Shown: positions 16,552-57,083 of the stretch, piece after piece
How positions within the stretch are numbered: the first letter of the stretch is position 1
Layout: each line of letters begins with the position of its first letter
Origin: Methylobacterium organophilum
GTDB taxonomy: Bacteria > Pseudomonadota > Alphaproteobacteria > Rhizobiales > Beijerinckiaceae
Direction of reading: 5' to 3'
DNA: 64,000 nt
NCBI RefSeq assembly: GCF_022179465.1
Contig: NZ_BPQV01000011.1
Location: forward strand, 124,001 to 188,000
Translations under genes and position numbers: made by a program
Notes under the pieces: generated by a model
What the model saw: the letters and a program-made list of their open reading frames with translations, nothing else
Database searches by the model: none
What the model was told of the DNA's origin: nothing

Positions 16552-16908
16552 ATGTCGATCAACATACCGAGACATCCACGACTCGGCCGGTCGTTGGCGC
16601 GAGCCGGACTGGCGCTGTGCCTCCTCTGCGCGGCGACGGCGGCCCGGAGCGCGGTGCTGCGCCTGAACGGCGCGGGCGGCCTGTCCTGCCGCGTGCTGGC
16701 CTCCCCCGCCAAGGCGCGTCTGCCGGAGGGGCGCGCCGCGCTGCAACGGAGCTTCGGCTACCTCACCGGCCGCGTCCAGTCGGGCGCCGGAGAGCCTCAC
16801 CAGCGCTTCGCGGGCCCGGACGGCATCGCCGCCGCGATCATCGCCTATTGCCGGGCGCACCCGAAGCGGCAGGTCGCCGACGCCGCGGCGGATTTCTTCG
16901 GGCCTTGA
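16552..16908 (+). CDS. Small exported protein, weakly Rap1a/Tai-like
   Basis: 118 residues with a clear signal peptide (positive start, hydrophobic ~14-32, AARSA cleavage-like site). The mature part has SFGYLTGRV and later AAIIAYCRAHPKRQVADAAADFF, a layout reminiscent of Rap1a/Tai immunity-type or HdeA-like small periplasmic proteins (GYLxG, then YC...P...A..F). Two cysteines remain in the mature chain. The family link is inferred from pattern only. It opens the run of small exported genes of cluster A. Confidence 0.6.
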   Translation: MSINIPRHPRLGRSLARAGLALCLLCAATAARSAVLRLNGAGGLSCRVLASPAKARLPEGRAALQRSFGYLTGRVQSGAGEPHQRFAGPDGIAAAIIAYCRAHPKRQVADAAADFFGP

Positions 16909-16989
16909 CGGCCTCTCCTCCGGTTCGACGCGGCATCGTGCGGGCCAGTCGATCGCTTGGTATTTCAGGTTCTCACAGGGGGTATCGCG

Positions 16990-17505
16990 ATGTCCATGAT
17001 CACCCGGTTTTGCCTCGCGAGCGCTGCCGTCGCTGCGGCGCTTCTGCTGGCCTTCCCGGCCGCGGCCCAGAACAATCGGTGCTCGGTGATGTGCAACGGC
17101 ATCGACAACCAATGCTACAGGTCCTGCGCCGGATCGAATGACGGCCTCTCGCCCTTTGGAGCGGCGCCCGGCAGCGGTCCCGGCCGGTCAGGTGGCGGCT
17201 ATGGCGCCATCGCGATCTCCGACAGCGACAAGGGCTCCCTGCGATGGGGAACATCCTATGATTACGAATCTCGCGGGCGCGCGGAAGCCGCGGCGATGCG
17301 AAACTGCATCGCCGGAGGGCTTCCGGGCTGCCGGGTGCGGCTCTGGTTCTCCAACGCCTGCGCCGCCCTCGTGACCGCCGGCAAAGGCCATTGGTGGGCA
17401 TCTTGGCGCGGTTCGCTTGCGGCCGCACGCCGTGCGGCACTGGCGGAGTGCGGGCAGGACGGTGAGAGCCGCTGCAGGGTGAGCGAGGCCTTCTGCTCGT
17501 CCTGA
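16990..17505 (+). CDS. Exported DUF4189-domain protein
   Basis: 171 residues from the ATG at 16990 (CAGGGGG upstream; an in-frame start at 16957 would precede the signal peptide needlessly). A signal peptide ends near AAAQ. A Cys-rich segment (RCSVMCNGIDNQCYRSC) is followed by a DUF4189-type domain from GGGYGAIAISDSDKG to the C-terminus, with paired cysteines likely forming disulphides. DUF4189 proteins are small secreted proteins of unknown role. A paralogue with the same N-terminal Cys cluster lies at 50123-50710 in cluster B. Confidence 0.75.
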   Translation: MSMITRFCLASAAVAAALLLAFPAAAQNNRCSVMCNGIDNQCYRSCAGSNDGLSPFGAAPGSGPGRSGGGYGAIAISDSDKGSLRWGTSYDYESRGRAEAAAMRNCIAGGLPGCRVRLWFSNACAALVTAGKGHWWASWRGSLAAARRAALAECGQDGESRCRVSEAFCSS

Positions 17506-17633
17506 GCAAACCTTTCTCTTGATCGGCACAGGGCCGGTAATGCCGAGCAACCGCCCGCAATTCCCTCGACCTGTTCATCGTGATCGCAATCGGCCCGCGT
17601 GCGATCGGCACGCCCGTCCGCCAGGAGCGTTCG

Positions 17634-18062
17634 ATGCGACACTGTTTCGCCTATGCCTTCCTCATAGTCTCGACACTCGGCTTTCTGGCCTTGCCTGCCG
17701 GCGCCGAGCCCCGCGCGCCGCTAGCCGCCGGCGGCTGCTGGATGGTGCTGCCCAAGGGCGAGAAGCCCGAACGCGGCAACGCCGCCGAAGTCTTGTGCCT
17801 CCGCCGGAACGGCTATGGCCGTGTCCGCGAAAGCTCCTTCTACGGCGATGTCGCCGGCTGCGGCCGGGTGACCTACCGCACGAGCAACGGCCCGACCCTG
17901 GTCGAGATCGACTTCAGCGCCTGCACCAACGGCGCGCCGAACCACAGCCTGCTTTGCGCGAGCGGCTCCGGGCGCAACCCTGTGCCCTGTCTCCAGAGGG
18001 TGCCCGGCGACGACGAGCCGGTGGAGATGGAGCTTTATCCGCTGGAAGGAGCAGGCTCGTGA
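17634..18062 (+). CDS. Small exported Cys-containing protein
   Basis: 142 residues from the ATG at 17634 (CAGGAGCG ribosome site). A signal peptide ends around PAGAEP. The mature protein of ~118 residues holds several cysteines (GGCWMVLPKG, EVLCLRRNGYG, VAGCGRVTY, LLCASGSG, PCLQ) suggesting a disulphide-bonded beta-rich fold. I do not recognise the family. Its TGA overlaps the GTG of the next gene (GTGA), so the two are translationally coupled. Confidence 0.72.
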   Translation: MRHCFAYAFLIVSTLGFLALPAGAEPRAPLAAGGCWMVLPKGEKPERGNAAEVLCLRRNGYGRVRESSFYGDVAGCGRVTYRTSNGPTLVEIDFSACTNGAPNHSLLCASGSGRNPVPCLQRVPGDDEPVEMELYPLEGAGS

Positions 18063-18517
18063 GACTCGCTTCCCGTCTCGCCGCCGTGCTCGGTCCGCTG
18101 CTCCTGCAGCCTGTCGCGGGGCACGCTTCCGATTGCCCGGAGGGCGTGGCCCGACCGCGTCCGGTGAAGGCCCCGATCGAACACCGGTTCGGGCACCGCC
18201 TGCATCCCGTCATCGGCATGGCGGTCTTCCAGCCGAACATGGTCTTCCGCACGCTCAGCGGCCAGGCCGTCGTGACGGTGCGAGCCGGCCGGGTCGAGCC
18301 CGTCGAAGCCACGCGGATCGGCCGCTTCGTGCGGATCCGGCAGCGCGACGGCAGCGAGCTGCGCTACGGGCCGCTGTCGCAGCTCCGCGTCCGTGCCGGG
18401 CGCTGCGTCGCGGCGGGCGCCAGGCTGGGCTGGACGACCTCGTCCCCGTTTACGCTCGCCCTGCGCCGAAACGAGGCATGGATCGATCCCGCGCCCCTGT
18501 TGGGAGGGGGCCGTTGA
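18059..18517 (+). CDS. Degenerate LytM/M23-like exported protein
   Basis: 152 residues starting with the GTG at 18059, coupled to the preceding gene. After a signal peptide (to ~GHAS) the chain has the M23 outline: APIEHRFGHRLHPVIG, a beta-turn region, VRIRQRDGSELRYGPLSQL and a final VAAGARLGW. In active M23 enzymes this has HxxxD and HxH zinc ligands. Here the metal positions are replaced (for example RYGPLS in place of YAHLS), so it should not be a peptidase and may be a peptidoglycan- or partner-binding LytM domain. A second such protein lies at 53056-53529. Confidence 0.68.
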   Translation: MRLASRLAAVLGPLLLQPVAGHASDCPEGVARPRPVKAPIEHRFGHRLHPVIGMAVFQPNMVFRTLSGQAVVTVRAGRVEPVEATRIGRFVRIRQRDGSELRYGPLSQLRVRAGRCVAAGARLGWTTSSPFTLALRRNEAWIDPAPLLGGGR

Positions 18518-18633
18518 CCAACGTGTCGCTGGAGCGGCTCACCGCAAGAGGGGGCAATCGACGTCAAGCGGGCGCAATGGTGCGAACGGCTCGGCCGGGG
18601 GAAGAAGACAGCGAGTCTTGTTCGAGGCCCGCC

Positions 18634-19125
18634 ATGCCGACACGCCGCTTCCTGTTGTCCCTGCTGAGCCTGCCGCTGCTGTCCTCGGTTTCCGTGGCGG
18701 AGGTGCCATGCAACCCGCACGGCGGGGCGTTGATCGTCCGGCCGCGCCGGCCGGCGCAGCCGCTCTCGGCGCAGCTCGATGCGCTGGGTCCGCTGGTCCA
18801 TGACGCCGCGCTTGGCCTCGCTTTGCAGCGGGCCTGGCGCTGCTTCACGCCGGAGGAGGCCGTGCGAATGCGCTCGACGCTCGCCTGGGCGCGGGACGCA
18901 CTGTCCCGCCCCGGCTTTAGCGAGGCCAGTCCGGCGCTGCTGAGGGCACCCCGGCGGCGCGGCAGGCGAGCGGCCGCGCGGCTGGTCGCGATGGGCACCG
19001 ACAGCGACGAGGCACGCGCCATGCAGGCCTCGTTGCGGTATGTTTTTGCGAGGGACAAGCTTGGGGGGACGGGCGCCCGTCGGATCTGTGATGGCGATCG
19101 CTCGATCAGGGGGATCTCACGATGA
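18634..19125 (+). CDS. Exported helical protein of unknown function
   Basis: 163 residues from ATG 18634: signal peptide MPTRRFLLSLLSLPLL, then a short Pro-rich part and Arg-rich helices (HDAALGLALQRAWRC, EEAVRMRSTLAWARDAL). The mature part has few cysteines. Not recognised. An upstream in-frame ATG at 18577 is possible but would bury the signal peptide. Its TGA overlaps the start of the next gene (ATGA at 19122-19125), indicating coupling to the two-TM protein. Confidence 0.65.
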   Translation: MPTRRFLLSLLSLPLLSSVSVAEVPCNPHGGALIVRPRRPAQPLSAQLDALGPLVHDAALGLALQRAWRCFTPEEAVRMRSTLAWARDALSRPGFSEASPALLRAPRRRGRRAAARLVAMGTDSDEARAMQASLRYVFARDKLGGTGARRICDGDRSIRGISR

Positions 19126-19754
19126 CAGAGCAGACTGTTGCCGAAGGCGGCGGGACCTTCAGGGATGCTTTCGGCGGTTCGCTCAAGCGGCCCACCAAGC
19201 CTTTGAAAATCGCGATGTTCGTCGCAATCGGCGCCTTCGCCGCCGTCGCGGCGATGTATCTCATGTTCGTGTTCGTGCCGCAAAACGGGCTCCCGGCGAT
19301 CCGCGACTGGTGGGCCGGGCTCGGAACACGATCCCTGCGCGGCGAATCCGCCGCCTTCTCTTCGATCGTGATGGGCGCGGTCGCGACGATTGTCGTCGCC
19401 TCCTTCGCAACCTTCACGCTGACGGAGGCCATTGCGGATCTGCGCAAGGAGAGGCCGTTGCGGAGCCTCGGCCGGGAGCTCGTCGTCATTCGCGAGCTGA
19501 CGGAAGAAGGCGTCGGCTATCGGGAGGGCGACATCCGGACGGTGCACGTGCCCTGGGTGCAGGTGCAGGAGCTGCGCTCGATGGATCTGCCGGCCTTCGA
19601 GGGCAGGCTCTTCTTCGTCATCGAGCTGAAGAGCCCGATCCACGAACGCGGCCGTCTCGTCTTCTGGGACGGGCAGGATCGTCACAACAGCATCGCCGGG
19701 CGTCTCCGCGAGCGCCTGGCGGCGTATCGCGCGGCGCAAGCCGCTGCCGGCTGA
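19122..19754 (+). CDS. Two-TM membrane protein with PH-like C-terminal domain
   Basis: 210 residues. Two membrane helices (~30-52 and ~82-105) are followed by ~100 cytosolic residues with alternating strands (IRTVHVPWVQVQELRSMD, LFFVIELKSP, GRLVFWDGQD) and a final helix. This is the layout of a bacterial PH-like domain: a Trp-x-x-Val/Ile strand followed by four or five more strands and a helix. Similar soluble parts occur in the proteins at 23353, 24530 and 49344. It is coupled to the preceding gene and lies 18 bases before the octapeptide-repeat gene. Confidence 0.68.
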   Translation: MTEQTVAEGGGTFRDAFGGSLKRPTKPLKIAMFVAIGAFAAVAAMYLMFVFVPQNGLPAIRDWWAGLGTRSLRGESAAFSSIVMGAVATIVVASFATFTLTEAIADLRKERPLRSLGRELVVIRELTEEGVGYREGDIRTVHVPWVQVQELRSMDLPAFEGRLFFVIELKSPIHERGRLVFWDGQDRHNSIAGRLRERLAAYRAAQAAAG

Positions 19755-19772: not shown

Positions 19773-22040
19773 ATGCAAACATTGCGTGATTTTCCTTTCT
19801 TCGTCCTGTGCGGTTCGACCCAAGACGATTATGTCCACCTGCCGGCGTTCGGGCGCTTCGAACGGATCGAGTGGCCGATGTTTTCCCGGGGAGACTTCAC
19901 CCGGCCGCCTCGCTACATCGGGCTTCTCGACCTCGACGGCCCGCCGCCGCTGGCTCATCTCGAAGCGGATGTTTGGGCCGTTGTCCGGATCGATCGGGAT
20001 GATCCTTGCGAACAGGAGACGCGGGAGGATGGGTCGGTCGTACCCGGCGTGGTGCGCTTCGCCTCCGGCTTCGTGCTGTTTCGCGGCCCGAAACGGATCG
20101 CGCTGAGCATCTTCTCCGCCTGCAACGCCGGCATGCCCCTGAAGACGCCGCTATCGGCCTTGCAGGATGACTCCGGCGTCGCCTTCGCCGGCGACTACGG
20201 CGCGGCGATCGCCGGCGACGAAGGTTTTGCCCGCGCCGGCGCCTACGGCATCGCCCAGGCCGGGGTGCCGGAGCAATGGGCCAGCCTGGACCTGCATGGG
20301 CGGCCCAAATGGGATGGATACAACTCCTTCGGCCTGGCGCTGGCGGGCGTAGATGGCTCGGCCTTCTGCGGCACCGAGGGTCTTGCCGTGGCAGAGAGCC
20401 GCGGCCGGGTGCGCGCGGCAGGTCTTGGCGTGGCGATCGGCCGAGGCACTCTCGGCGAACGCTGTGTCGTCGAGACGGGTTATAAAGGCGTCGCCATCTC
20501 GCAGGCTGCGAACGGGTACCTGACCGCTGGCAAAGGGTCCGTCGCAGTGGCCACCGGCAGCAGCCGCTGGTTCGAGATCGGCCACGGGGGGATCGGCGTC
20601 TCACGCAGGCATGTGGAGGTGCTGGACATCGGCGACGAGGCCGTCGTGATCGCGCCTGAACTCGGGGAAGAGACCCTGCTCCGTCTGGGCCGGGACGCGA
20701 CACTGATCTGCCGTCAGCAGTCGTTCCCCTTGCGGTCCGGTGTTGTCCGCGTGTTCACGACCTGCGGCGGCGAGCTTCAGCCTGGCGTCTACGCGCATTC
20801 GAAAGGCTGTCTTGAAATGCGTTTCGCCGAAGAGCTCAAGCCTCACTTCGTGCTCTTCGAGGAATCACTGGAAGAGCCGGAGGAGAGCGCTCCCACGGCC
20901 CCGGCTCCCGCCTTCCCATCCGGCGTGCTGTGGTGGGAGGCCGCGCACAGCCACGATCCGAAGGCCGATATCGTGGCGGAGCCGATGCTGCGGGAGCAGA
21001 TCATCGTTCTGTGCTCCAACATCCCGGCAGCCGAGCTCGAGGCGGGGCGACAGGAGGGTAAGGAGTGGCTCGGCGCCTTGTGGGGTCGCGGCGAGCTGCC
21101 CGTAAGCGATGGGGCGCCTTGTTGTCTGGTCCGGGTCGAGGGGGAGCACACGCCCGCACAGCAGCGCGGCGGGCCGATCGGCTTCCGGAGAGGAGCGGCG
21201 CTTTATCGTGGCACCTTGCGGGGAGCGGTCGCCGCCTTGCGCGCCCTCGGCGAGGACACGGTGCTTGACGGCAGCATCGCTTTGGCGGGGCATGGGGGCG
21301 TCGCGCGCGTACCGTCGCGCATGCAGTCCATGCCGCTGCCTCCAGCACATCCCGAAGACACGCACGAACGCTCCTACTTCACTCCGTACGACGTCCTGCG
21401 CGGTGACCGGGCCATCGGGCGCAACCCCACGCTGGCGATCGCAGGCGACGAGGGTTTTGCGATCTGCGACGGCGAGGCGCATGCGGGCAGGCGCGGCGTC
21501 GCCTGCGTCTCTGGCCTCGGCGTCGCCCGGGCGGGATTTCTTGGGATCGCCCTTTGCGAAAACGGCCGCGCGATCGCCGGCGACTTCGGCATTTCCATGT
21601 GCCGCCTGGTCAAAGGCCTCGGTGACGAAAGCTATCCGATCAGAGGGGGACAGGCTGTCGCGGGCTTATTCGGCATCGCCTTCGCGGATCTGCCCGGTTC
21701 CGACGTGATCGCCAGCGACTATGGCATCGCTATACTCCGGGATGCCGGACGGGCCCGGACGGGGAGCTTCGGTGTGGCGATCGGCATCGGTTCGGACCAG
21801 GCCGATGTCCAGGGCGGCGCCGACGCCGTCGTCGTCTCACGCGAGGGGCGTGTCAGCGGGGGAGAAGGTGCGCTGCTGGTCGTCTGGGATGCCGGCACAA
21901 AGCGATGGATCCACGCCATGGTCGGCCGGGACGGCATCGAGCGCGGCGTCGCCTATGTCGCCCGCAACGGCCGGTTCGAGCCCTGGACCAGCACCATCGT
22001 GACGGAGGTCCGCCGCAAGCGCCGACGATGGCTGCACTGA
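19773..22040 (+). CDS. Octapeptide-repeat (beta-solenoid) protein A
   Basis: 755 residues, no signal peptide, strong GGAGG ribosome site. The ~115-residue N-terminal domain starts DFPFFVLCGSTQDDY. A first repeat array (~130-300) consists of eight-residue units such as GDYGAAIA, GDEGFARA, GAYGIAQA, with Gly at 1 and 4 and small residues at 6 and 8. A ~230-residue middle domain (with WWEAAHSHDP and GRGELPV blocks) follows, then a second array (~550-700) and a cap GALLVVWD...GRDGIERG...NGRFEP. Such units should stack as a beta-solenoid. Domain order is the same in the protein at 53586. The cap resembles those of GDGA-type repeat proteins of phages and bacteria. Function unknown. Confidence 0.8.
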   Translation: MQTLRDFPFFVLCGSTQDDYVHLPAFGRFERIEWPMFSRGDFTRPPRYIGLLDLDGPPPLAHLEADVWAVVRIDRDDPCEQETREDGSVVPGVVRFASGFVLFRGPKRIALSIFSACNAGMPLKTPLSALQDDSGVAFAGDYGAAIAGDEGFARAGAYGIAQAGVPEQWASLDLHGRPKWDGYNSFGLALAGVDGSAFCGTEGLAVAESRGRVRAAGLGVAIGRGTLGERCVVETGYKGVAISQAANGYLTAGKGSVAVATGSSRWFEIGHGGIGVSRRHVEVLDIGDEAVVIAPELGEETLLRLGRDATLICRQQSFPLRSGVVRVFTTCGGELQPGVYAHSKGCLEMRFAEELKPHFVLFEESLEEPEESAPTAPAPAFPSGVLWWEAAHSHDPKADIVAEPMLREQIIVLCSNIPAAELEAGRQEGKEWLGALWGRGELPVSDGAPCCLVRVEGEHTPAQQRGGPIGFRRGAALYRGTLRGAVAALRALGEDTVLDGSIALAGHGGVARVPSRMQSMPLPPAHPEDTHERSYFTPYDVLRGDRAIGRNPTLAIAGDEGFAICDGEAHAGRRGVACVSGLGVARAGFLGIALCENGRAIAGDFGISMCRLVKGLGDESYPIRGGQAVAGLFGIAFADLPGSDVIASDYGIAILRDAGRARTGSFGVAIGIGSDQADVQGGADAVVVSREGRVSGGEGALLVVWDAGTKRWIHAMVGRDGIERGVAYVARNGRFEPWTSTIVTEVRRKRRRWLH

Positions 22041-22149: not shown

Positions 22150-22611
22150 ATGAAGAAACACCTCGCCCTCGCCGCCGTGGTCCTGCTCGCCGCGACAGGC
22201 GCGCAGGCTCAGCAGAGCCAGCAGAAGATCGCCGTCAAGAACCGCGACATGATCGTCGCCATCACGAGCGAGCAGCTGGAGGACAAGATCGTCGGCAAGC
22301 CCGAGATCTTCCAGCGGCGCAACATCGCCTACGCCATCGGCATGACGCGCAGCCTGCACCGGGCCTGCACCATCCTCTCGGCCGAGGACAGCGCGCGGCT
22401 GGAGCGGCTCGAGCGGGCCTACCGGACGAGGAAGGCAAGCAACGAGATCGACGCGGCGATGCAGGCCATGGTGCTGGGCGAACTCGACAACGGCGCCTCC
22501 GACACGGCCGCCCTGCTCGGCCGCTACGACTGCGCTGCGCTGGAGCGCGCCAAGCTGACCGGCCCGCTGCTCGCCTTCTGGAACAAATATCTCCCCCGGC
22601 TCGCCGGCTGA
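22150..22611 (+). CDS. Small exported protein of unknown function
   Basis: 153 residues with a signal peptide MKKHLALAAVVLLAATGAQAQ and a mostly helical mature chain (LEDKIVGKPEIFQRRN, LHRACTILSAEDSARLERL, FWNKYLPRLAG end). Two cysteines (LHRAC and RYDCAAL) could pair. Not recognised. It lies 34 bases upstream of the next exported gene, so both are probably co-transcribed. Confidence 0.7.
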   Translation: MKKHLALAAVVLLAATGAQAQQSQQKIAVKNRDMIVAITSEQLEDKIVGKPEIFQRRNIAYAIGMTRSLHRACTILSAEDSARLERLERAYRTRKASNEIDAAMQAMVLGELDNGASDTAALLGRYDCAALERAKLTGPLLAFWNKYLPRLAG

Positions 22612-22644
22612 GCCGCCGCATGCAGCAAGCACGAGGAGGTCTCG

Positions 22645-23214
22645 ATGTCGCTTCGCTTTCCTCGATCCTTCGTTGCGGCGCTGATCGCCGCGGCGGGCCT
22701 GCTCGCGGCCCACGCGGCCTCGGCGCAGACCGCGCCCGCGCCGCGCCTCGAAGCCCAGCGTCTGGCCAATGCGCAGTTCGAGACGTTTCGGACCCGCTGC
22801 GGCAAGGGCTATGTCGTCGCCGCCGACGTCACGCCGCCGCCGCGGGGCGGCTTCACCGCCACACTGGGGACGCCTGCGCCCGGAGCCTCCTCCGGCCATA
22901 CGCTCTATGTCGCCTATGCCGATGTCCGCCTCGACGGGCGCGAGATCACGACCGATATCGACCGTCGCAATGGGATCGCCTGGCGCGGAACGCTGGCCTA
23001 CAGCGCCGCCGCTCTGCGCCAGATCTCGGTCGGCCATGACGGGACCAGAGGCGCCTGGAGCCCGTGGCAGCCCGCCGGACCGATCTATACGGTGACGCTG
23101 GAGCTCAAGAACGGGAGCTGGTCGAGCCGCGGGCAAGAGATGTCGCTTCTGGGTGCGCTGGGGCGCTACGCCAAGCTGAGGCGTCCGGCCTGTGCAGAGA
23201 TTCCAGCAGGCTGA
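22645..23214 (+). CDS. Exported protein of the 22645/56497 family
   Basis: 189 residues: signal peptide ending ASAQ, helix (LEAQRLANAQFETFRTRCG) then a beta-rich domain with HTLYVAYADVRLDGRE, RRNGIAWRG, LRQISVGHDGT, WSPWQPAGPIYTV and GRYAKLRRPAC. Two Cys bracket the domain. The whole C-terminal two thirds align with the frameshifted gene at 56497-57083, so this is a conserved member of the two clusters. Family not recognised. Start at ATG 22645 with GAGGAGG upstream. Confidence 0.75.
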   Translation: MSLRFPRSFVAALIAAAGLLAAHAASAQTAPAPRLEAQRLANAQFETFRTRCGKGYVVAADVTPPPRGGFTATLGTPAPGASSGHTLYVAYADVRLDGREITTDIDRRNGIAWRGTLAYSAAALRQISVGHDGTRGAWSPWQPAGPIYTVTLELKNGSWSSRGQEMSLLGALGRYAKLRRPACAEIPAG

Positions 23215-23352: not shown

Positions 23353-24453
23353 ATGGACGAACCAAGCGTCGCCTTCAGTGTCGAGGGCAAAACCTTTCGC
23401 AGACCGATCGGCGTGTTTTCCATCCTCGGCGTCTGCGCTCTCGCGGGCGCCATTCTCTGCCTGTTGCAACTCGTGACCAGGCCTTTGACGCTGTCGAACG
23501 CCGTGCCGCTGCTCTTCGGCGGCGTCGGAGGACTGATCGGGCTCGCGGCAGGCCTCGGTTTTACCGCCATGCATCTCAACGCATGGCGGGCCGGGCGTGA
23601 TCCGGATGCCACCGCAAGGCGGATCACGCCTCTCGTCGTCACGGCCGGCGGGATCTTCATCGACCCCTATCCCTATGCCGGTCCCGGACCTCTGGGAGCG
23701 CGCCGCCGCCGCTTCGTGCCCTTGCGGGACGTCGCCGCGATCGGGCCGGTCAAGGAAACGGGCCTGTTTCCCGTGACGGTGGCGGAGAAGGACGGGGTTC
23801 AGAAGACCGTCTACGAAATCCCCGAACAGGCGCGCGGCGAGGCCGGTGCGACGCCGTACGCCACGCTCCTCGCCGCTCGGCAGCGCTATCTGGCCGGGCT
23901 TTCATCCGCGGCCCGGGCCGCGACGGGGACGTTCCTCGTTCCGGTCGTAAGGGCGGCGCCGCCGATCTGGCGCGTGCTCGGTGGCGGCGTGCTGCTCGCG
24001 GGCGCGGCCGTCTTCGCTCTCCTGCTGACCGCGACAGCCGCGGCGACGAAGAGCGCCAATCTCGACCTCAAGGCCTTTCTCACGCTTCTGGGCTGGAGCG
24101 CGATTATCGCGTTCGTCGCCCTTGCGATCGTCGCCGCCGCGATCGGGGCCTGGCGCGCCCGAGGCCAGCAGATCGCCTGGCCCGTCGCGACGATCGAGGC
24201 GGACGGCTTCACCGCCACCGCCCTGCCGAATGCGGCAGGCGACCTCTTCGGCGATCTTGAAGGCCGCAGCGGCCGCGTCGCCTGGCCTGAGGTTCGAAGC
24301 ATAGGGCCGCCGCTCCCCGGCGAAAACGACTTTACCGTCGACATCGGCGAGCGCCACCCACTGCGTCTGCCGGCCTCGGCCAGAGCTGAAGACGGGCGGA
24401 CGCTTCATCCGGCGCTCGCCGAGGCATGGCGATCATCGCGCTCGGAAAGCTGA
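23353..24453 (+). CDS. Four-TM membrane protein with two PH-like domains
   Basis: 366 residues. Helices lie at ~20-45 and ~50-75, followed by a soluble ~120-residue part starting RRITPLVVTAGGIFID and containing RRRFVPLRDVAAIG. Two more helices lie at ~210-235 and ~245-270. A second soluble part has QQIAWPVATIEADGF, VAWPEVRSIGPPLPG and ends PLRLPASARAEDGRTLHPAL. Both soluble parts look like PH-like beta domains repeating the same [2 TM + PH] unit. The next gene is a paralogue carrying a frameshift. Confidence 0.7.
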   Translation: MDEPSVAFSVEGKTFRRPIGVFSILGVCALAGAILCLLQLVTRPLTLSNAVPLLFGGVGGLIGLAAGLGFTAMHLNAWRAGRDPDATARRITPLVVTAGGIFIDPYPYAGPGPLGARRRRFVPLRDVAAIGPVKETGLFPVTVAEKDGVQKTVYEIPEQARGEAGATPYATLLAARQRYLAGLSSAARAATGTFLVPVVRAAPPIWRVLGGGVLLAGAAVFALLLTATAAATKSANLDLKAFLTLLGWSAIIAFVALAIVAAAIGAWRARGQQIAWPVATIEADGFTATALPNAAGDLFGDLEGRSGRVAWPEVRSIGPPLPGENDFTVDIGERHPLRLPASARAEDGRTLHPALAEAWRSSRSES

Positions 24454-26482: not shown

Positions 26483-26598
26483 CGCCGCCTCCTTGAGCGG
26501 CCATCATGCCGTGCCGGTGCCGGCCCAGGCAATTGATGCCGATTGCATCGCATTGCGATCGGCATCCTGCCCTGCGCGATCGATCATGACCCTGTGCG

Positions 26599-33064: not shown

Positions 33065-33211
33065 GCCTGCCCTCATTGGCGGCGGCGAAGGCGCCGCGAC
33101 CCTCGACACCTGGCACGAAGAGCCACCCCTTCGCCCGCACCGCCGCGAGCACACCCGTTAGGCTTCAATCGAGCGAGGCTCACTGCATCCAGCAGATAGT
33201 CTCGATGCCGG

Positions 33212-43454: not shown

Positions 43455-43461
43455 GGCGGCC

Positions 43462-50126: not shown

Positions 50127-50710
50127 TCTCTCCCCCATGAGCACAGCACCTCGTGCACCCGGCATTCCTCCGCCCCCTTGCTGCGGCAATAGGCGAGCGC
50201 GTTGTCCCGCGCCGCGAGGTTCGCGGCCCGCCGGTTCGGGCCATTGCCGTAGAAGACGCCGTGACCCCGCCGGCCGCGGCCGTCCGCGTAGGCGAGGCAG
50301 CCGTCCACGACCGTCGCCGGACCGTCGCAGGTCCGCCCGGCGAGGCGGATGCACTCCGACATGGCCCGCTGCCGTGCCTCGACCGCGTCGGGGAAGTTCC
50401 AGGCGAAGCCGGCCTTGCCCGTCTCGAAGTCGACCGCCATCGCGGCGAAGGAGCCGCCTTGTCGGGAGCGGGCCGCGGGACGGCCGCCGCCGCCCTGCCA
50501 GCGCCACGCGTTGGAATAGCAGGTCGATTCGCAGTCGCTCCGCCGGGATTCGCAGATCGGTTGCGCCGCCGGATCGTTCGAGAAGCAGGCCCGGTTGCAG
50601 GAATAGCGACAGGCGTCGAGGCTGCCGGCGCTCAGGTCCTGCGCCCCGGCGGACGCTGTCGCGAGGCAGAGCAGCAGGGCCGCCGCCGGACGAAGGGCTT
50701 CAGGACGCAA
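50123..50710 (-). CDS. Exported DUF4189-domain protein (cluster B)
   Basis: 195 residues. A signal peptide ends ASAGAQ. A Cys cluster follows (ACRYSCNRACFSNDPAAQPIC, SDCESTCYSN), then the DUF4189-like region GSFAAMAVDFETGKAGFAW to CRVHEVLCSWG. At least ten cysteines suggest several disulphides. The first ATG lies inside the end of the PDZ gene (11-base overlap) and the stop overlaps the next start, so 52235 to 49344 reads as one coupled operon. Counterpart of 16990-17505. Confidence 0.75.
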   Translation of the reverse strand: MRPEALRPAAALLLCLATASAGAQDLSAGSLDACRYSCNRACFSNDPAAQPICESRRSDCESTCYSNAWRWQGGGGRPAARSRQGGSFAAMAVDFETGKAGFAWNFPDAVEARQRAMSECIRLAGRTCDGPATVVDGCLAYADGRGRRGHGVFYGNGPNRRAANLAARDNALAYCRSKGAEECRVHEVLCSWGRE

Positions 50711-52235
50711 GGCGGTTGCTCCCCAGGCCGGCGAGGTTCGATTGCGCCGCCGCCTTCGGCCATGCGACCGCCGGCAGCATCACGCCCATGCGCCGGCCGC
50801 CGCGGAGGATGGAGGCGGCGTGGTCTCCGGGCTCGGCCCGTCCCACCGCCGACACCAGATCCTCCGCCGTACCGATCGGATGTCCGGCGAAGGCGACGAC
50901 AATATCCCCGACCCGGAGCATGCGGGAGGCCGGCGTTCCCTCGGCGAAGCCCACGACCAGCGCTCCGGCGGTTCCCGAGTCCGGCGTGGCGGCCCAACTC
51001 CCGCCGAGGTCGCTGACGAGCAGGCCCGCATAGCCGCTGCGGCGATCGCCCCCGGGCACGCCGGGCGGCAGCGGACGGTCCGGCCAGACCGCCCGGCGGG
51101 CGGGCTCCAGCGCGGCATAGGCCGCTTCCCCCACCTCGGCCGGCATCAGCGCCACGGCAGCGGCATATCGCTCCTGTGCGTCGCTGGTGAGGGTGGAGGT
51201 CGCGAAGTCCTCCGTGCGGCGCCGGTCGGCTTCCCCGCGCGCGGCTTCGGCCAGGATCCAGGCCGGCGCCTCCGGCCGCCGGGCCGAGACCGCGGGAAAA
51301 CGCGGCGTCAGTGCCAGATCGCCGAGACCGGGCCGGCCGAGGCGCGTGGTGCGCAGCGACGTCTCGATCAGCGCGTCGCGGGCGAGAGGGCCGACGAGGT
51401 CCGCCACCCAGGCCGGCGGATCGCTCGCCTCACCGGCGGGGAGGCTCCGCACGATCGCGGCCAGGGTCGACTGAACGAGGCATGATGCGGCATCCGGATC
51501 GGGCAGCGAGAGTGCCCGTTCCCGCAGCATCGTCTCCTGCGCCTCGCCGAGGGGCTCGCCTCGCTTGGCCGGCGCGCACAGGACGAAGGTCGCGGGTCCG
51601 GCGCCGCGGGCATCGAAGCCGAACCCGTCCCGCGCACGGGCGAGGGCGTCGGGGCGGCCCGCGTGCAAGTCGCCCGCGAGCCCCGGCGGCCGCTCGGCCG
51701 CGAGAAATAGCCGGGCGAGAGCCGACCTCCGCACCTCGGCCGGGACCGCGCCGGACGGCAGGACCACCGCGACGATATCGGCCTCCGTCGCGCCGCGACT
51801 GCCGGCGAGTCCCGCCCAGGCGGCGGCACGGCGGAGGTCGCCGGCCTCGAACCAATGCTCGGCGAGCGCCGCGGCGGCACCCATGTCGCCGAGGGAAGCG
51901 GCCTTCTCCAACAGGCCGACGCGGTCCGGTGCCGGTCCGGCGAGACCCTGGGCGCGCAGAAGTGCGGCCACCGCCTCCCGGCTCCAGCCCGCGCCCGCGG
52001 ACGTGGCGAGCAGGGCGGGAGGCAGATCCGCGGGGTCGGGAGGGCCGAGCGCCCAGCCGGCGAAATCCGCAGGGATCGCGGCGCGCCGCAGACGGCGCAG
52101 GGTATCGAGAACCGGCGCGATGCGGTCGAGACGGACCTGCGCATCGTCTCGGGCGGAGGGAGGGGCGGCCGAGGCGGGCAGGCATGGCGCGAGGCAGGAG
52201 AGAGCGACGACGACGCCCCGGATCATGCTGCGCAT
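50700..52235 (-). CDS. Exported protein with C-terminal PDZ domain
   Basis: 511 residues from ATG 52233-52235, chosen because of the strong GAGGAGGT site nine bases upstream. Signal peptide to ~PASA. The middle ~350 residues are helical with Sel1-like pieces (LLEKAASLGDMGAAAALAEH). The last ~90 residues form a PDZ domain: GTAGALVVGFAEGTPASRM, LRVGDIVVAFAGHPIGT and the DLVSAVGRAEPGDHAA helix. No protease domain is present; PDZ could bind exposed termini of envelope proteins. Head of the four-gene reverse operon or second after 52363. Confidence 0.8.
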   Translation of the reverse strand: MRSMIRGVVVALSCLAPCLPASAAPPSARDDAQVRLDRIAPVLDTLRRLRRAAIPADFAGWALGPPDPADLPPALLATSAGAGWSREAVAALLRAQGLAGPAPDRVGLLEKAASLGDMGAAAALAEHWFEAGDLRRAAAWAGLAGSRGATEADIVAVVLPSGAVPAEVRRSALARLFLAAERPPGLAGDLHAGRPDALARARDGFGFDARGAGPATFVLCAPAKRGEPLGEAQETMLRERALSLPDPDAASCLVQSTLAAIVRSLPAGEASDPPAWVADLVGPLARDALIETSLRTTRLGRPGLGDLALTPRFPAVSARRPEAPAWILAEAARGEADRRRTEDFATSTLTSDAQERYAAAVALMPAEVGEAAYAALEPARRAVWPDRPLPPGVPGGDRRSGYAGLLVSDLGGSWAATPDSGTAGALVVGFAEGTPASRMLRVGDIVVAFAGHPIGTAEDLVSAVGRAEPGDHAASILRGGRRMGVMLPAVAWPKAAAQSNLAGLGSNRLAS

Positions 52236-52362: not shown

Positions 52363-52848
52363 CTAATGCGCGCGAAGGCGGCCTTCCGTGCGTCCTGTTC
52401 CACCGCCGAACCCAGGATCGACGCAGGCGGTCTCGCGGCGATTCGCGTAGATCCGCACGAGGCAGCCGAAGACCGGTTCGTCGCCGGGATCGGTCCAGGC
52501 ACTCCAGCGGCCGGAGGTCGAGCGGGTGCGGATGGCGCGCGCGTGAAACCAGAAGAGCTGACGCCAGCGCAGGCCGGCTCGGCTCTCCGCGCCGGACGGC
52601 GGCGCGATCGGCCCCGGCGTGATCGCGACGCCGCGCTCCTCCCGCAGCAGGCGGACGCCGCCGGCGCCGCGCGAGGCGGCCAGGAACCCGCCTCCGACAT
52701 GTTGCCGCTGTGCATGGTACCGGGCGATGGCGGTGCTGCGGGCGAGCGCCGGGTCGCTCGGCAGCGGCAGGCGGCGCGCCTCGGCGGCCGAGGCGAAGCC
52801 GATCGCCAACGCGGCGACGAGACATCGGCGGACGGGCTGGCAGGACAT
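52363..52848 (-). CDS. Small exported protein of unknown function
   Basis: 161 residues: a signal peptide MSCQPVRRCLVAALAIGFAS, then an Arg-rich mature chain with RWRQLFWFHARAIRTR, SGRWSAWTDPGDEPVFGCLVRIYANRRET and a GFGGG loop. Not recognised. It stands 127 bases before the PDZ gene on the same strand and is divergent from the LytM-like gene at 53056 (207-base gap, likely promoters). Confidence 0.6.
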   Translation of the reverse strand: MSCQPVRRCLVAALAIGFASAAEARRLPLPSDPALARSTAIARYHAQRQHVGGGFLAASRGAGGVRLLREERGVAITPGPIAPPSGAESRAGLRWRQLFWFHARAIRTRSTSGRWSAWTDPGDEPVFGCLVRIYANRRETACVDPGFGGGTGRTEGRLRAH

Positions 52849-53055
52849 GGGGTCGGCCCTCGTTCGAGCTGGACGATGCCGGACGGGGGAGGCCGCCGCC
52901 ATTGCGGATTGTTGCCTCTCGTTGCGCGCCGGCATCGGGCCGATCTCGCGACGCGCGTCGGCAAGCCGGAGCAAGCCCGCGCAGTTCCCTCTTCCCATCC
53001 GCCGGAGCAGGATCCGCAGATCGGTCCTGCCGCAGGACTGCCGGATCGGAGCACC

Positions 53056-53529
53056 ATGATGGAAAGTCCTGCCGGCTCTGTCCGGATCGCCCGGCGATTC
53101 TGCGCGGCGGCGCTCGTTCTGGCGACGCAGGACGCCGGTGCGCAGGCCGCGCCCTGTCCGCGACGCGTTCCCGTGGAGGCGCCGATCGCCCGGCCCTTCG
53201 GCATCGGGCTCCGCCCCTTGTCGCTGACGCCGGTGCTGCATGCCGGCGTGGTCTACGTGACGCGCCCCGGACTGACGGTGCGGGCCTTGGGAGACGGCTT
53301 GGTGGCATCCTGCAAAGCGGCCGGGAGGCGGGGAAGCCACCTCTGGATCACGCAGAGGGGCGGCCTGCGCCTGCGCTACGGCCCGCTGTCGACCAGGTTG
53401 CGCCCGCATGCCGTCGTCCAGGCGGGTGCCGTGCTGGGGACGACCCTGCGGACACCCCTGACGCTGCGCGGTCTCCGGCATGGCCGCTGGGTCGATCCGC
53501 TACGTGCCGCCTGCGGTCCGGTCGGATAA
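53056..53529 (+). CDS. Degenerate LytM/M23-like exported protein (cluster B)
   Basis: 157 residues from ATG 53056 (53059 also possible). Signal-like N-terminus, then VEAPIARPFGIGLRPLSLTPVLHAG, ITQRGGLRLRYGPLSTRL, VVQAGAVLGTTLRT. The RYGPLS strand matches the cluster A protein at 18059 exactly in position and again replaces the HxH zinc site; the first zinc His is also lost. So it is probably a non-catalytic LytM fold. It lies 56 bases before the octapeptide-repeat gene, as the counterpart lies upstream of the one in cluster A. Confidence 0.68.
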   Translation: MMESPAGSVRIARRFCAAALVLATQDAGAQAAPCPRRVPVEAPIARPFGIGLRPLSLTPVLHAGVVYVTRPGLTVRALGDGLVASCKAAGRRGSHLWITQRGGLRLRYGPLSTRLRPHAVVQAGAVLGTTLRTPLTLRGLRHGRWVDPLRAACGPVG

Positions 53530-53585: not shown

Positions 53586-55847
53586 ATGTCTGACGATATG
53601 GCTACGACAATTCCTTGGAGGATCTGGAACTTCGAGGACCGCCCGCTTCATCTGTTGTGCGGGTCCCGGCAGGATCTCGGGAAAGGGATCGCGACGCTGC
53701 CATCCTTCGGTCGATTCGCGCTCGCCGACGAACACTCGCACTATCGCGGGCTCGTAGGCTTACCGAAGGGGCTCGGCGATCCGGACCTGGCCGGGCTTCG
53801 CTCGGCGGTCTGGGCAATCGTCCGCCTCGACGCCGGAGACGCGGCCGAGGCCCTCTTCGCCGACGACGGTTCCTTCGAAGGCCTCCACTTTCGCTCAGGG
53901 TTCGTGGTCCATCGCGGCGGCCGCCGGAGTGCCCTCGACCTTCTGACCCGTCTTGGCTGCGATCCGGCGGGCTGGGCCGGCGGTCTGCTGCGCTTCTCCG
54001 GTGCGGACGGCGTGGCGGTGGCGGGCGCGGACGGCTTTGCTGAGGCCGGCGACGAGGCGTTGGCGTTCGCAGGACCGCGGGGCGAGGCCCGCTGCGGTCG
54101 CAGCGGGCTGGCCCGGGCGGGGGCCGGGGGAACGGCAGAAGGCGGCGACAGAGCCCTCGCCGTCGTCGATCGCTTGGGAAGCGCCCGCTGCGGTACGTGC
54201 GGACTTGCGGTAGCCCGGTCGGACGCTGTCGCCGCTGCCGGCGCGGATGGCGTCGCCGTGGCGCTCGGCCGGGACTGTGTGGTCGAAGCCGGTTGGGGCG
54301 GTGCGGCCATCGCCGCGGGTCCGGTCCGGCTGATCCGGGTCGGTAGGAGTGGGATCGGGATCGTGCGCGCGAGCGCCAAGGCGATCGCCGTCGATGAGGA
54401 CGGGCTCTGCCTTCACCCCCAGCCTCTGGCGAGGTACACGCTCGTGCGTCTCGGACGGGGCGCCGTCCTGTTGTACGGCGTGCAGGACGGTGGCCCGCTC
54501 CGGCAGCTGGTGGGCGGTTCGGACTGCGCGCCCGATGGCGGAACCTTCGTGTTCCGCGATGGGTCCTGGTATCCGGCCGCCTGGGAGATCGATATCTACG
54601 CCCTCGATCCCGATCGAGGCTGGGCCGTGACGGACGAGGGCGCCGAAGCGTCCCGGCGTCCGGCCGCGCCCGATTTACGTGCGCCGCCACAGGACCAGCC
54701 CTGGTGGCGCGTCGCAGCGTACCACGATCCCGCCAGCAGATGCACCGAGCGTTGGCCCGCACCCGGCGACACCGTGGTGCTGACCCGCCCGGTGCCGGAC
54801 GCTGCGCAGGATGAAGAAGGGCGCGTGGCGCGGGACTGGACGGGCTTGCCCTGGGGCCGAGGCGATCTCTCCCTTCCCGAGGGGAGCACCTGCATGTTGG
54901 TGCGGATCGAAACTCCTTCGGAGGCGGACGAGCGCGGGGCCGTGAGCTGTCGGGGAGGCGACATCCTCTATCACGGCAACCTGCGCGGCGCCGTCGCCGC
55001 TCTGGTGGCGATGGGGGCGGATCCCGAGGGGATGGGGCTCGACATCGCTCTCGCCGGCGAGGGTGGGGTCGCCCGCGTGAATCCGGGCCGCAATCCCGCG
55101 GGCGGCTCTCCGATGGCTTCGCAAGGGGTCATGGAGGAGGACGAGACCGATCCCGACAACTGGGCCGACGTCCCGATGCTGACGGGGGATCCGGCCCGGC
55201 CGATGCGCCCCTCCCTCGCCGTGGCCGGGCCTGCGGGCATCGCGATCTGTGCGGGCGAGGCGCATGCGGGCGCGGACGGCGTCGCCTGGGCTCTGGATCG
55301 GGGAAGCGCGCGGGTCCTCGGATGTGGCATCGCGGTCGGCGCCTTTGGCCAGGCTGTCGCCGGCTCCGACGGAATAGCCTGGATCCGCGATCCCACGGGC
55401 CGCTGGGGTCCGTTAGGTCGACGGTCGCTGGGTGTGCCGCCTCAAGCTGAGGTCGGCTCGCGAGGGCTCGCGGTCTGTGCGGCGCCTGGCGGTCGGGCCA
55501 CGGCGGCAGCCGCGGGGATCGCCGTGGTGGCCGAGGGCGGCAGCGCGACCTGCGGCGCGCTCGGTCTCGCGGTCTGCCTCCGCTCGGGCGGCCTAGCCTC
55601 CGCCGGTCGCGATGCGGTGGCGGTCGCAGCACGCGGCAATGTCTGCGGCCTGACGGGCGCTCTGCTCGTCGCCCGGGACGAGACCGGGCGCTGGGTCCAT
55701 GGGCGGGTCGGGGAAGACGGAATCGCGGAGAGCGTCCCCTACGTAGCGGCGGGCGGGCGGTTCCTGCCGCGCGTCGTCGTGCTCCCCCGTGCCGCGCGGC
55801 GCGGCGGCTCGGATCGGTCAGGGGCGACGAGGAGGAGACGCTCGTGA
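53586..55847 (+). CDS. Octapeptide-repeat (beta-solenoid) protein B
   Basis: 753 residues with the same order of parts as the protein at 19773: N-terminal domain (PLHLLCGSRQDLG, VWAIVRLDAGD, FRSGFVVHRGGRR), first array (~133-298, e.g. GADGVAVA, GADGFAEA, CGTCGLAVARS), a middle domain with PWGRGDLSLPEG, LRGAVAALVAMG, IALAGEGGVARVN, a second array (~543-692, GPAGIAICAGEAHAGADG) and a cap GALLVARD...GEDGIAES...GGRFLP. No signal peptide. Identity to copy A is moderate. Its TGA overlaps the GTG of the partner gene, so the repeat protein and the partner are likely made together. Confidence 0.8.
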   Translation: MSDDMATTIPWRIWNFEDRPLHLLCGSRQDLGKGIATLPSFGRFALADEHSHYRGLVGLPKGLGDPDLAGLRSAVWAIVRLDAGDAAEALFADDGSFEGLHFRSGFVVHRGGRRSALDLLTRLGCDPAGWAGGLLRFSGADGVAVAGADGFAEAGDEALAFAGPRGEARCGRSGLARAGAGGTAEGGDRALAVVDRLGSARCGTCGLAVARSDAVAAAGADGVAVALGRDCVVEAGWGGAAIAAGPVRLIRVGRSGIGIVRASAKAIAVDEDGLCLHPQPLARYTLVRLGRGAVLLYGVQDGGPLRQLVGGSDCAPDGGTFVFRDGSWYPAAWEIDIYALDPDRGWAVTDEGAEASRRPAAPDLRAPPQDQPWWRVAAYHDPASRCTERWPAPGDTVVLTRPVPDAAQDEEGRVARDWTGLPWGRGDLSLPEGSTCMLVRIETPSEADERGAVSCRGGDILYHGNLRGAVAALVAMGADPEGMGLDIALAGEGGVARVNPGRNPAGGSPMASQGVMEEDETDPDNWADVPMLTGDPARPMRPSLAVAGPAGIAICAGEAHAGADGVAWALDRGSARVLGCGIAVGAFGQAVAGSDGIAWIRDPTGRWGPLGRRSLGVPPQAEVGSRGLAVCAAPGGRATAAAAGIAVVAEGGSATCGALGLAVCLRSGGLASAGRDAVAVAARGNVCGLTGALLVARDETGRWVHGRVGEDGIAESVPYVAAGGRFLPRVVVLPRAARRGGSDRSGATRRRRS

Positions 55848-56500
55848 GGTGGTGGCGCGACGGGACGGATCGCCTCGCCTTCCGGCTCTGGCGGCTGCTC
55901 CGGCGCCATCCGACCGGCATGCCCGCGCCGCAGCCCTGGTCGGGACCGCCCGATCCGTCACCCGACCCCGCGCGCGAGCCCCCGGTCCGGGCCGCCGCGC
56001 GCCCGGCGCTTCCCTCCATCGGGGAGATGCTTCTCGCCCTCGCGCCCCGGCTCGACTGGACCGATCCGGTTCTGCGCCGGGGTTTGGCAGAGCCGGTATG
56101 GACGCCGCCGCCGGACTTGCGGGCGCTGATCGAGCGGGCCCGCGACGAGGCGGGGCAGATGCCCCTCTACGAACTCGGGATGAGCCTGCCCACGCATACG
56201 CTGGTGCTCGCCTGCCTCGCCCTCCTGCGCTCGCGAGAGGACGCGGCCATCGATGCGCTGCCGTGCCCGGAAGCGGGAGGGGCGGTGCGGGACATTCCCG
56301 GTTCGGTCCAGACGGCGATGTTCCTGGCCTTCGGTCTGATCTGGCCCCCACGAAGCGCCGATGCCCCGGTCGAGTTCGTCCGACCGAGCCCTGTCGCAAC
56401 GCCGGTCAACGCCGCGCAAGTGCCGCCGGTCCTGCGGCCTGAGAGATCTCCGACATCGGATCCCCCTCGGATCCCGACGATCGTGAGACCCGAGCCATGA
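55844..56500 (+). CDS. Partner-family protein B (homologue of 25655)
   Basis: 218 residues from the GTG 55844 (AGGAGGAG upstream), overlapping the repeat-protein stop. Conserved blocks with the protein at 25655: HPTGMPAPQ, LALAPRLDWTDPVLRRGL, PVWTPPP, LYELGMSLPTHTLVLAC, LALLRS, TAMFLAFGLIWPP. A Pro-rich tail of ~40 residues follows. No TM or signal. The next gene's ATG overlaps its stop (ATGA). Coupling to the repeat protein in this copy strengthens the view that the two work together. Confidence 0.75.
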   Translation: MRWWRDGTDRLAFRLWRLLRRHPTGMPAPQPWSGPPDPSPDPAREPPVRAAARPALPSIGEMLLALAPRLDWTDPVLRRGLAEPVWTPPPDLRALIERARDEAGQMPLYELGMSLPTHTLVLACLALLRSREDAAIDALPCPEAGGAVRDIPGSVQTAMFLAFGLIWPPRSADAPVEFVRPSPVATPVNAAQVPPVLRPERSPTSDPPRIPTIVRPEP

Positions 56501-57083
56501 AGACCGTCATCGCCGCTGCCACCTGCACTACCTTCGCCGTCCTGGCCTTCGGGCCGATGCCGCTGGTGGCAGGTCTCGCTGCACAGGCGCAGCATTCCGC
56601 CTTGGGTGATGCCAGGGGTGAGGCCGCGGATCGGGCCAACGCGCTGTTCGGCACCTATCGCGCCCGCTGCGGGTCGGTCGCCGTCGTCGCCATCGATGTC
56701 GCCGCCGCTCCTGCAGGAGCTTCGCGGGATCGCTGGAGAGCACGCAGGCACCTGTCCGGAACGGCCACACCCTCTACGTCGCCCTGGCCGACCTGCGCCT
56801 CGACGCCCGGGAAACTACCTCGCCCGCGGACCGCCGCAACGGTATCGACTGGTCGGGCCGCCTGACCTTCGGCGCCGGCTCCGTGCGCCAGATCTCGGTG
56901 GGTCGCGACGGGACCATGGGTCGCTGGACCCCCTGGCAGGCGGGCGGTCCGGTCTACGCGGTGGACCTCGCCCGGCGCGACGGCGGGTGGTCCCACCGGA
57001 TCGACGAGATGCCGGTTGTGACGGGACTCGGCCGCTACGGTCGCCTGCGCCGTCCGACCTGTTCCGAAGTGCCCGCAGGCTGA
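56497..57083 (+). pseudogene. Frameshifted exported protein of the 22645 family
   Basis: The frame from ATG 56497 gives a signal peptide and CGSVAVVAIDVAAAPAG, then turns to junk and stops at ~56865. A second frame carries the homologous rest: SFAGSLESTQAPVRNGHTLY, RRNGIDWSG, VRQISVGRDGT, WTPWQAGGPVYAV, GRYGRLRRPTC to 57083. Adding one G in GGAGCTTC near 56718 joins them as PAGGFAGSLES, parallel to PPRGGFTATLG in the copy at 22645, and gives 195 residues (copy A has 189). So the gene has lost one base, or the sequence has a one-base error. Confidence 0.78.

What the first reader, a model, noticed from the sequence alone, without database searches (positions are those of the whole stretch)
16552..57083. 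Two paralogous accessory clusters sharing at least five gene families
Cluster A (16.5-26.5 kb) and cluster B (39.3-60 kb) each contain a DUF4189 protein, a degenerate LytM protein, a two-TM/PH-like protein, an octapeptide-repeat protein, a partner-family protein (25655/55844) and a small exported protein (22645/56497). Order differs but several genes are coupled by ATGA/GTGA overlaps. Recurring sets of unknown genes usually mark one system.
Basis: partly seen in the sequence, partly recalled or inferred. Interest (0 to 1): 0.85.

Follow-up and report, generated by a model that had tools for sequence, protein, structure and literature searches.

The report
Island gene system with divergent repeat protein
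Two gene clusters in this bacterial genome are parts of one rare, mobile, membrane-linked gene system, found beside anti-virus genes, in which one repeat-protein gene differs sharply from its counterpart in another bacterium while its neighbours hardly do.

Summary
The clusters do share families: octapeptide protein (OCT), partner, dead LytM, DUF4189 and a small exported protein (frame-broken in B). The two-TM pair is only suggestive. Bosea sp. CRIB-10 carries cluster A's genes and cluster B's backbone (ExbB-like pair, kinase/regulator, Sel1, 48426, caspase) in one 24.7-kb locus, so A and B are parts of one system. My searches found relatives in three other genera: Bosea, Chelatococcus (plasmid-like contig) and Xanthobacter.

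New facts: (1) of 14 A-block genes compared with Bosea, 13 are 86-99% identical in DNA, OCT 70%, with edges within tens of bases of its start and stop. (2) OCT is modelled as two tandem beta-solenoid units resembling phage proteins of unknown function. (3) The ExbD-position subunit has Ala where seven of seven relatives from other loci have a membrane Asp, plus a new Lys. (4) A split SIR2-type gene with an Argonaute lies between A and B; IetA, DISARM- and Lamassu-type genes lie beside the Bosea copy.

Best reading: a mobile defence or conflict system, OCT the variable sensor, a membrane caspase the effector. One system: near certain. Defence: inferred, about 0.4.

The parts
16552..16908 (+). 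small probably exported protein (A); homologues in Bosea and Xanthobacter loci
   Evidence: N-terminal hydrophobic segment
16990..17505 (+). DUF4189 protein (A), 11 Cys, probably exported
   Evidence: Pfam PF13827 E 2e-20; 4 of 4 loci
17580..18062 (+). probably exported protein of unknown family (A)
   Evidence: 4 of 4 loci
18059..18517 (+). LytM/M23-fold protein with lost zinc ligands (A)
   Evidence: Pfam M23 E 3e-8; alignment with E. coli MepM: Asp and HxH lost in 5 of 5
18634..19125 (+). probably exported protein (A)
   Evidence: Bosea, Xanthobacter
19122..19754 (+). two-TM protein (A)
   Evidence: 2 TM segments; Bosea 92%, Chelatococcus 75%; a 44-aa piece in Xanthobacter
19773..22040 (+). 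OCT-A: tandem alpha/beta head plus octapeptide beta-solenoid, no signal peptide seen; gene-bounded divergence from Bosea
22150..22611 (+). small protein (A), signal-like N-terminus by eye
   Evidence: 4 of 4 loci
22645..23214 (+). small probably exported protein (A)
   Evidence: 4 of 4 loci; B copy 56497
23353..24453 (+). four-TM protein (A)
   Evidence: Bosea 96%, Chelatococcus 78%
24855..25658 (+). shortened tandem paralogue of 23353
   Evidence: 42%
25655..26482 (-). partner protein (A), predicted helical, poor model
39342..41468 (+). Sel1-repeat protein (B backbone)
   Evidence: Pfam Sel1 E 8e-53
41661..43454 (+). membrane hybrid histidine kinase (B backbone)
   Evidence: Pfam; TM segments
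43462..44106 (-). response regulator (B backbone), read from sequence
   Evidence: sequence; not sent to Pfam
44301..45086 (+). MotA/TolQ/ExbB-like subunit
   Evidence: Pfam E 3e-13; TolQ Thr pair kept
45112..46938 (+). ExbD/TolR-position subunit: one N-terminal TM plus long coiled coil; Ala where relatives have TM Asp, Lys added
46935..48353 (+). membrane protein with an N-terminal Cys cluster (zinc-ribbon-like, read from sequence)
   Evidence: no Pfam match
48426..49325 (+). protein with HTH-like N-terminus (inference, no Pfam match), next to the caspase gene in Bosea and Chelatococcus
49344..50126 (-). TM protein (B), weak counterpart of 19122
50123..50710 (-). DUF4189 protein (B)
   Evidence: Pfam E 8.5e-13
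50700..52235 (-). protein with N-terminal hydrophobic segment and C-terminal PDZ-like domain (B)
   Evidence: PDZ_2 E 1e-5, 26.1 bits under the cut-off of 27
52363..52848 (-). possible third copy of the small exported family
53053..53529 (+). LytM-fold protein with lost zinc ligands (B)
53586..55847 (+). OCT-B
   Evidence: 36% to OCT-A
55844..56500 (+). partner protein (B); GTG start overlaps the OCT-B stop
56497..56865 (+). small exported protein (B), frame-broken: C-terminal half lies downstream in another frame
57106..59919 (-). caspase domain (His-Cys dyad motifs), one TM, unassigned middle, C-terminal thioredoxin domain with CPAC
   Evidence: Pfam C14 E 1e-26, Thioredoxin_4 E 3e-17

Best explanation
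Clusters A and B are accessory sets of one horizontally moving system that spans cytosol, inner membrane and periplasm. Backbone (one copy, in B): ExbB-like ring protein with an ExbD-position coiled-coil protein, histidine kinase and response regulator, Sel1 and Cys-cluster membrane proteins, the HTH-like protein 48426 and a membrane caspase whose thioredoxin domain would lie in the periplasm. Each accessory set supplies a cytosolic beta-solenoid protein (OCT), its partner, and small, mostly exported proteins including a catalytically dead LytM. Proposed mechanism: OCT is the variable sensor (or decoy) for an invader- or neighbour-specific ligand; with its partner it releases the caspase and the envelope components (dead LytM as regulator of a wall hydrolase), giving growth arrest or lysis. 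Shown: gene set, co-occurrence, island or plasmid-like setting, gene-bounded OCT divergence in one pair, Asp loss, dead LytM, caspase motifs, nearby defence genes. Inferred: topology, sensing, caspase activation, envelope effect and the defence role.
For: One system: Bosea holds A genes and backbone in one locus; eight families in 4 of 4 loci. Variable OCT: 13 other A-block genes have nucleotide identity 0.856-0.987 and dS 0.02-0.27 to Bosea, OCT 0.696 and dS 0.73, with the change at the ends of the gene; OCT identity is 52-62% for all six species pairs, so it hardly follows species distance. Defence context: SIR2-type and Argonaute genes at 33212-37244 between A and B; IetA, DrmA, DrmB, type II methylase and LmuB within 25 kb right of the Bosea copy. 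Effector: AGHG and D[TA]C motifs in 3 of 3 proteins whose caspase part is held.
Against: No function is tested. Of the 10 cluster proteins given to PADLOC (of about 28), only weak ZorA, caspase and generic coiled-coil matches came back. Defence neighbours can be bystanders of an integration hot spot; Chelatococcus flanks show conjugation genes, no named defence system. Many accessory proteins look exported, which fits envelope upkeep equally well. OCT dS (0.73) equals that of the backbone (0.48-0.81; 48426 and caspase about 1.2), so the neighbours may be what moved. omega of OCT is 0.41: no positive selection shown. LytM is as divergent as OCT or more in pairs with Chelatococcus (44-45%). Short dips of identity also occur outside OCT, and only one close pair shows the pattern.
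Confidence: 0.4

Rival explanations
1. Envelope-stress or cell-cycle system: an ExbB/ExbD-like unit with Sel1, dead LytM, DUF4189 and kinase/regulator adjusts the cell wall; OCT is a scaffold; the defence neighbours are accidental.
For: ExbB-like relatives in other Alphaproteobacteria sit with Ser/Thr kinase, PP2C and FHA genes. Many accessory proteins have N-terminal hydrophobic segments. Dead LytM proteins elsewhere regulate amidases (recalled: EnvC, NlpD).
Against: Rare, island or plasmid-like distribution; caspase part in 4 of 4 loci except that Xanthobacter's caspase N-terminus is cut off; divergent OCT.
Confidence: 0.3
2. Kin- or neighbour-recognition system: OCT alleles are identity markers or polymorphic effectors, the partner their cognate immunity-like protein.
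For: Two OCT/partner pairs in one genome, overlapping genes in B; OCT alleles nearly equidistant between species; part of the partner gene (25961-26560) diverges more than the rest.
Against: No secretion signal or toxin domain found in OCT; Chelatococcus keeps only a fragment of the partner.
Confidence: 0.15
3. Unrelated cargo genes gathered on islands, alike only through shared mobility.
For: Transposases and integrase pieces lie at 14-15, 27-28, 31-33 and 37.6-39 kb; 24855 and 56497 look decayed.
Against: Largely the same set and order in four genera; omega below 1 in all 22 genes compared (0.07-0.76).
Confidence: 0.07
4. Not exclusive of the above: OCT is resident with the backbone, and the other A genes were exchanged around it.
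For: OCT dS 0.73 matches Sel1, kinase, coiled-coil and Cys-cluster protein dS 0.62-0.81.
Against: Needs exchanges on both sides ending at OCT's ends instead of one replacement.
Confidence: 0.3

Closest known systems
Ser/Thr kinase - PP2C - FHA - MotA/ExbB-like clusters of Alphaproteobacteria (e.g. Rhizobium leguminosarum pRlBT01d)
   Same: ExbB-like subunit (39-41% to the OCT-locus ones) and an ExbD-position protein with a related N-terminal TM; a distant Sel1-type neighbour
   Different: No kinase, PP2C or FHA family among the B proteins sent to Pfam; TM Asp lost; caspase, histidine kinase/regulator and OCT set instead
Zorya (ZorA/ZorB)
   Same: ZorA-like ring subunit (PADLOC E 1e-7; NCBIfam ZorA2 far under cut-off)
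   Different: ExbD-position protein has no TM Asp; no ZorC, D or E match among the 10 proteins given; pair not found in the Xanthobacter genome
Caspase-containing bacterial conflict systems (EACC1-associated caspases; eLife 2020, PMC7159879, one passage seen)
   Same: Caspase domain with His-Cys motifs
   Different: NCBIfam EACC1 caspase score 46.8 under its cut-off of 140; here fused to a TM and a thioredoxin domain
Phage octapeptide-repeat proteins (phrog_18079; DUF7666 phage protein A0A6J5LL01; phage EL Q2Z0Y1)
   Same: Eight-residue beta-solenoid; Foldseek E 5.6e-5 at best but low TM-scores; phrog_18079 E 1e-6 to 3e-11 in 5 of 5 OCTs given, of 6 held
   Different: Ten best phage matches are 221-480 aa; OCT is a tandem of two units, about 750 aa, with a partner gene. 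The matches lie mainly in the repeats, so common repeat make-up may add to them

Membership tests
Zorya | ZorA-type MotA/ExbB ring protein | tested here: inconclusive
   PADLOC ZorA2 E 1.4e-7 over 85 residues; NCBIfam ZorA2 16.6 bits, cut-off 700
Zorya | B subunit with ion-path Asp in its TM (recalled for ZorB) | tested here: not met
   Ala in 4 of 4 OCT-locus proteins, Asp in 7 of 7 relatives from other loci
Zorya | ZorC/ZorD/ZorE partners | tested here: inconclusive
   no match among the 10 proteins given, of about 28 in the clusters
Proton-driven ExbBD/TolQR/MotAB stators | Conserved Thr pair in ring subunit | tested here: met
   both kept against E. coli TolQ in 4 of 4
Proton-driven ExbBD/TolQR/MotAB stators | Protonatable TM Asp (ExbD Asp25) | tested here: not met
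   role of Asp25 from passages of PMC12905483. Alignment to TolR itself is gapped and ambiguous
Kinase-PP2C-FHA ExbB-like clusters | FHA gene near the ExbB-like gene | tested here: not met
   no FHA match among window B proteins sent to Pfam (43462 not sent); present in Rhizobium by Pfam and in 5 of 6 fetched relatives by similarity
EACC1-type caspase systems | NCBIfam caspase_w_EACC1 at cut-off | tested here: not met
   46.8 bits, cut-off 140
Bacterial caspase (Peptidase C14) | C14 domain with His-Cys dyad | tested here: met
   Pfam E 1e-26; AGHG and DTC
Active M23 endopeptidases | Zinc ligands HxxxD and HxH | tested here: not met
   Asp and HxH lost in 5 of 5; first His kept in 2 of 5
DUF7666 / phrog_18079 octapeptide proteins | Eight-residue beta-solenoid | tested here: met
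   period-8 signal in 6 of 6; model; PHROG
DUF7666 / phrog_18079 octapeptide proteins | Pfam match at cut-off | tested here: not met
   no Pfam family for 19773 or 53586

The most novel reading that the evidence does not exclude
A new type of bacterial immune machine: a cytosolic tandem beta-solenoid, built from a fold shared with phage proteins, is a swappable receptor replaced gene-for-gene between lineages, and it drives a membrane caspase with a periplasmic thioredoxin domain, in most carriers together with an ExbB/ExbD-like ring that has given up its proton-carrying Asp and so works as a mechanical or signalling coupler instead of a proton motor.
Probability: 0.15. Interest if true: 0.92.

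Novelty: categorically new. Interest (0 to 1): 0.66.

Why it matters
If right, it is a defence or recognition system that matches no named one as a whole, with a clear experimental handle: the OCT gene, which differs while its neighbours stay nearly the same. The Asp-less ExbD-position subunit would be a natural test of whether stator-type rings can work without proton flow. The gene set would also give a shared role to families that have none now (partner, 17580, 22150, 22645, with DUF4189 and dead LytM). The novelty rating concerns the gene set; single parts have known relatives, and only the family libraries named and open-access papers could be searched.

Tried and rejected

Literature: DUF4189 (3 papers listed, none on such a system by title and abstract); ZorA, MotA, caspase, defense (32 papers, 15 listed, mostly off-topic); EACC1 (2 listed, one passage of one seen); octapeptide repeat, beta-helix and others together (0); stator papers (3 listed, passages of PMC12905483 seen); DUF7666 (0); SPARSA (5 listed, abstracts' starts seen); FHA, PP2C, ExbB (1 listed, off-topic); caspase-like and defense island (2 listed). 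No paper was read whole.

Full report
Check of the observation. OCT 19773/53586 (E 3e-73), partner 25655/55844 (E 1e-48) and LytM 18059/53053-53529 (score 189 against at most 53 in 300 shuffles) are beyond doubt. DUF4189 is supported by Pfam on both sides. The small exported pair is real, but the B copy is frame-broken; a later stretch matches A at 73% in DNA (22960-23094 / 56829-56963). The two-TM pair stays suggestive.

One system. The search for related loci with the OCT pair found five loci: two in MAG AWTP1-6, 99.97% and 100% identical to the window over 18.6 and 20.4 kb (its record title says Mycobacterium), and one each in Xanthobacter aminoxidans, Bosea sp. CRIB-10 and Chelatococcus asaccharovorans. 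In Bosea the order is: 48426-like, caspase, 15800, 16552, DUF4189, Cys-cluster protein, coiled-coil protein, ExbB-like, regulator, kinase, Sel1, 17580, LytM, 18634, two-TM, OCT, 22150, 22645, 23353, shortened 24855-like, partner, 26599, integrase (28733-53430). This is cluster A with most of cluster B's backbone between DUF4189 and 17580. The two window clusters are therefore a split and partly doubled version of one locus. By tblastn (limit E 1e-4), OCT, LytM, DUF4189, 17580, 22150, 22645, 48426 and the caspase protein are in 4 of 4 loci, the Chelatococcus caspase matching only over 235 residues; ExbB-like, coiled-coil protein, kinase and regulator in 3 of 4; Sel1 in 2 of 4; the partner is reduced to a 23-residue match in Chelatococcus and the two-TM protein to 44 residues in Xanthobacter. 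The Xanthobacter contig is short, but a search of its genome also found no ExbB-like match.

Rarity and mobility. Coiled-coil protein and 48426 profile: 1 of 289 each, own. These searches score few candidates per genome, so distant relatives can be missed. The Chelatococcus contig (84.8 kb) has Trb conjugation, ParA and RepC genes beside the locus. In the window, A lies downstream of tRNA-Ser at 12056, in a stretch of lower G+C (0.61-0.69 at 12-38 kb) with transposases and integrase pieces.

Gene-bounded divergence. Window against Bosea, 14 genes of the A block: 13 have nucleotide identity 0.856-0.987 and dS 0.02-0.27; OCT has 0.696 and 0.73. In a DNA alignment identity is 0.97-0.98 per 100 bases up to 19696, 0.80-0.95 per 20 bases up to the OCT start at 19773, then 0.45-0.80 per 100 bases through most of the gene, 0.83 in the block over its end, and 0.93 or more from 22061 on. 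Other dips exist and are told here: 17500-17698 (0.51-0.75), 18499-18696 (0.69-0.76), 22561-22760 (0.73-0.76), 0.79-0.90 in 25961-26560 of the partner, and about 650 bases at 24761-25410 missing in Bosea; all but the partner stretch and the gap are at gene edges or between genes. Backbone genes have dS 0.48-0.81 (48426 and caspase about 1.2). So OCT has the divergence of the backbone while its neighbours are recent sharers. Either OCT was replaced, or the neighbours were exchanged around it; both mean that OCT moves or stays as a unit of its own. omega of 0.41 shows constraint, not positive selection. The pattern rests on one close pair. Pairwise identities of four species mostly agree: OCT 52-62% for all six pairs, but LytM is lower (44-45%) in the three pairs with Chelatococcus.

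The stator pair. The ExbB-like protein keeps the Thr pair of TolQ in 4 of 4. Its profile finds relatives in 8 of 289 class genomes, own included. Of six neighbourhoods fetched (of seven), five have an FHA gene near it, three a kinase and two PP2C by similarity to the Rhizobium plasmid locus, whose kinase, PP2C, FHA and ExbB identities come from Pfam. ExbD-position proteins were held from Rhizobium and four of these genomes: all 7 carry Asp in the TM. The 4 from OCT loci (window, Bosea, two in Chelatococcus) carry Ala there, a Lys four residues later and an acidic residue five earlier, in an alignment without gaps over the TM. The loss thus looks derived and specific to OCT loci.

Effector and envelope parts. 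57106 has a caspase domain with AGHG and DTC, one TM at about 290-308 and a thioredoxin domain with CPAC; Bosea has CASC and Xanthobacter (N-terminus not held) CADC; the Chelatococcus protein is a caspase with another C-terminus, no TM found and no CxxC. LytM proteins have lost Asp and HxH in 5 of 5.

Setting. Between A and B lie an Argonaute gene and a SIR2-type Argonaute-associated gene split in two ORFs (33212-37244; 'short Argonaute, SPARSA-like' is my reading from size and partner). Right of the Bosea copy: IetA, a type II methylase, DrmA, DrmB and LmuB. These are PADLOC matches, not proven systems. Two of the three loci with long flanks have such neighbours.

Verdict. I commit to a mobile defence or conflict system with OCT as variable sensor and a membrane caspase as effector (0.4), with an envelope system as main rival (0.3).

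Noticed in passing
window 33212-37244 (-): Argonaute gene with a SIR2-type partner (PADLOC pAgo_I E 1e-136, Aga_SIR2 E 3e-113); the SIR2 gene is split into two ORFs near 36.7 kb.
   Followed up: partly
window 56497-57083: Small exported gene of cluster B is frame-broken; an identical MAG contig shows the same.
   Followed up: partly
window 27273-27899 and 32666-33076: Two integrase-like genes, 79% alike over 132 aa; the first is 98.7% identical in DNA to one in Bosea, closer than any cluster A gene.
   Followed up: no
L005, L009 (RXJD01000025.1, RXJD01000053.1): Records titled Mycobacterium sp. MAG are 99.97-100% identical to parts of this window, whose relatives are Alphaproteobacteria, so the title looks wrong or the MAG mixed.
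   Followed up: no
L024 (Rhizobium leguminosarum pRlBT01d, 148390-179073): Kinase-PP2C-FHA-ExbB-like cluster with a 1610-aa protein beside it, without annotation in the collection; relatives in several Alphaproteobacteria.
   Followed up: partly
OCT residues 1-109 (window 19773-20099): Head domain aligns weakly with two ADP-ribosyltransferase-fold proteins (Tpt1, Arr).
   Followed up: no
window 29160-31047: dCTP-deaminase-like protein and a partly FMN-oxidoreductase-like protein inside the island.
   Followed up: no
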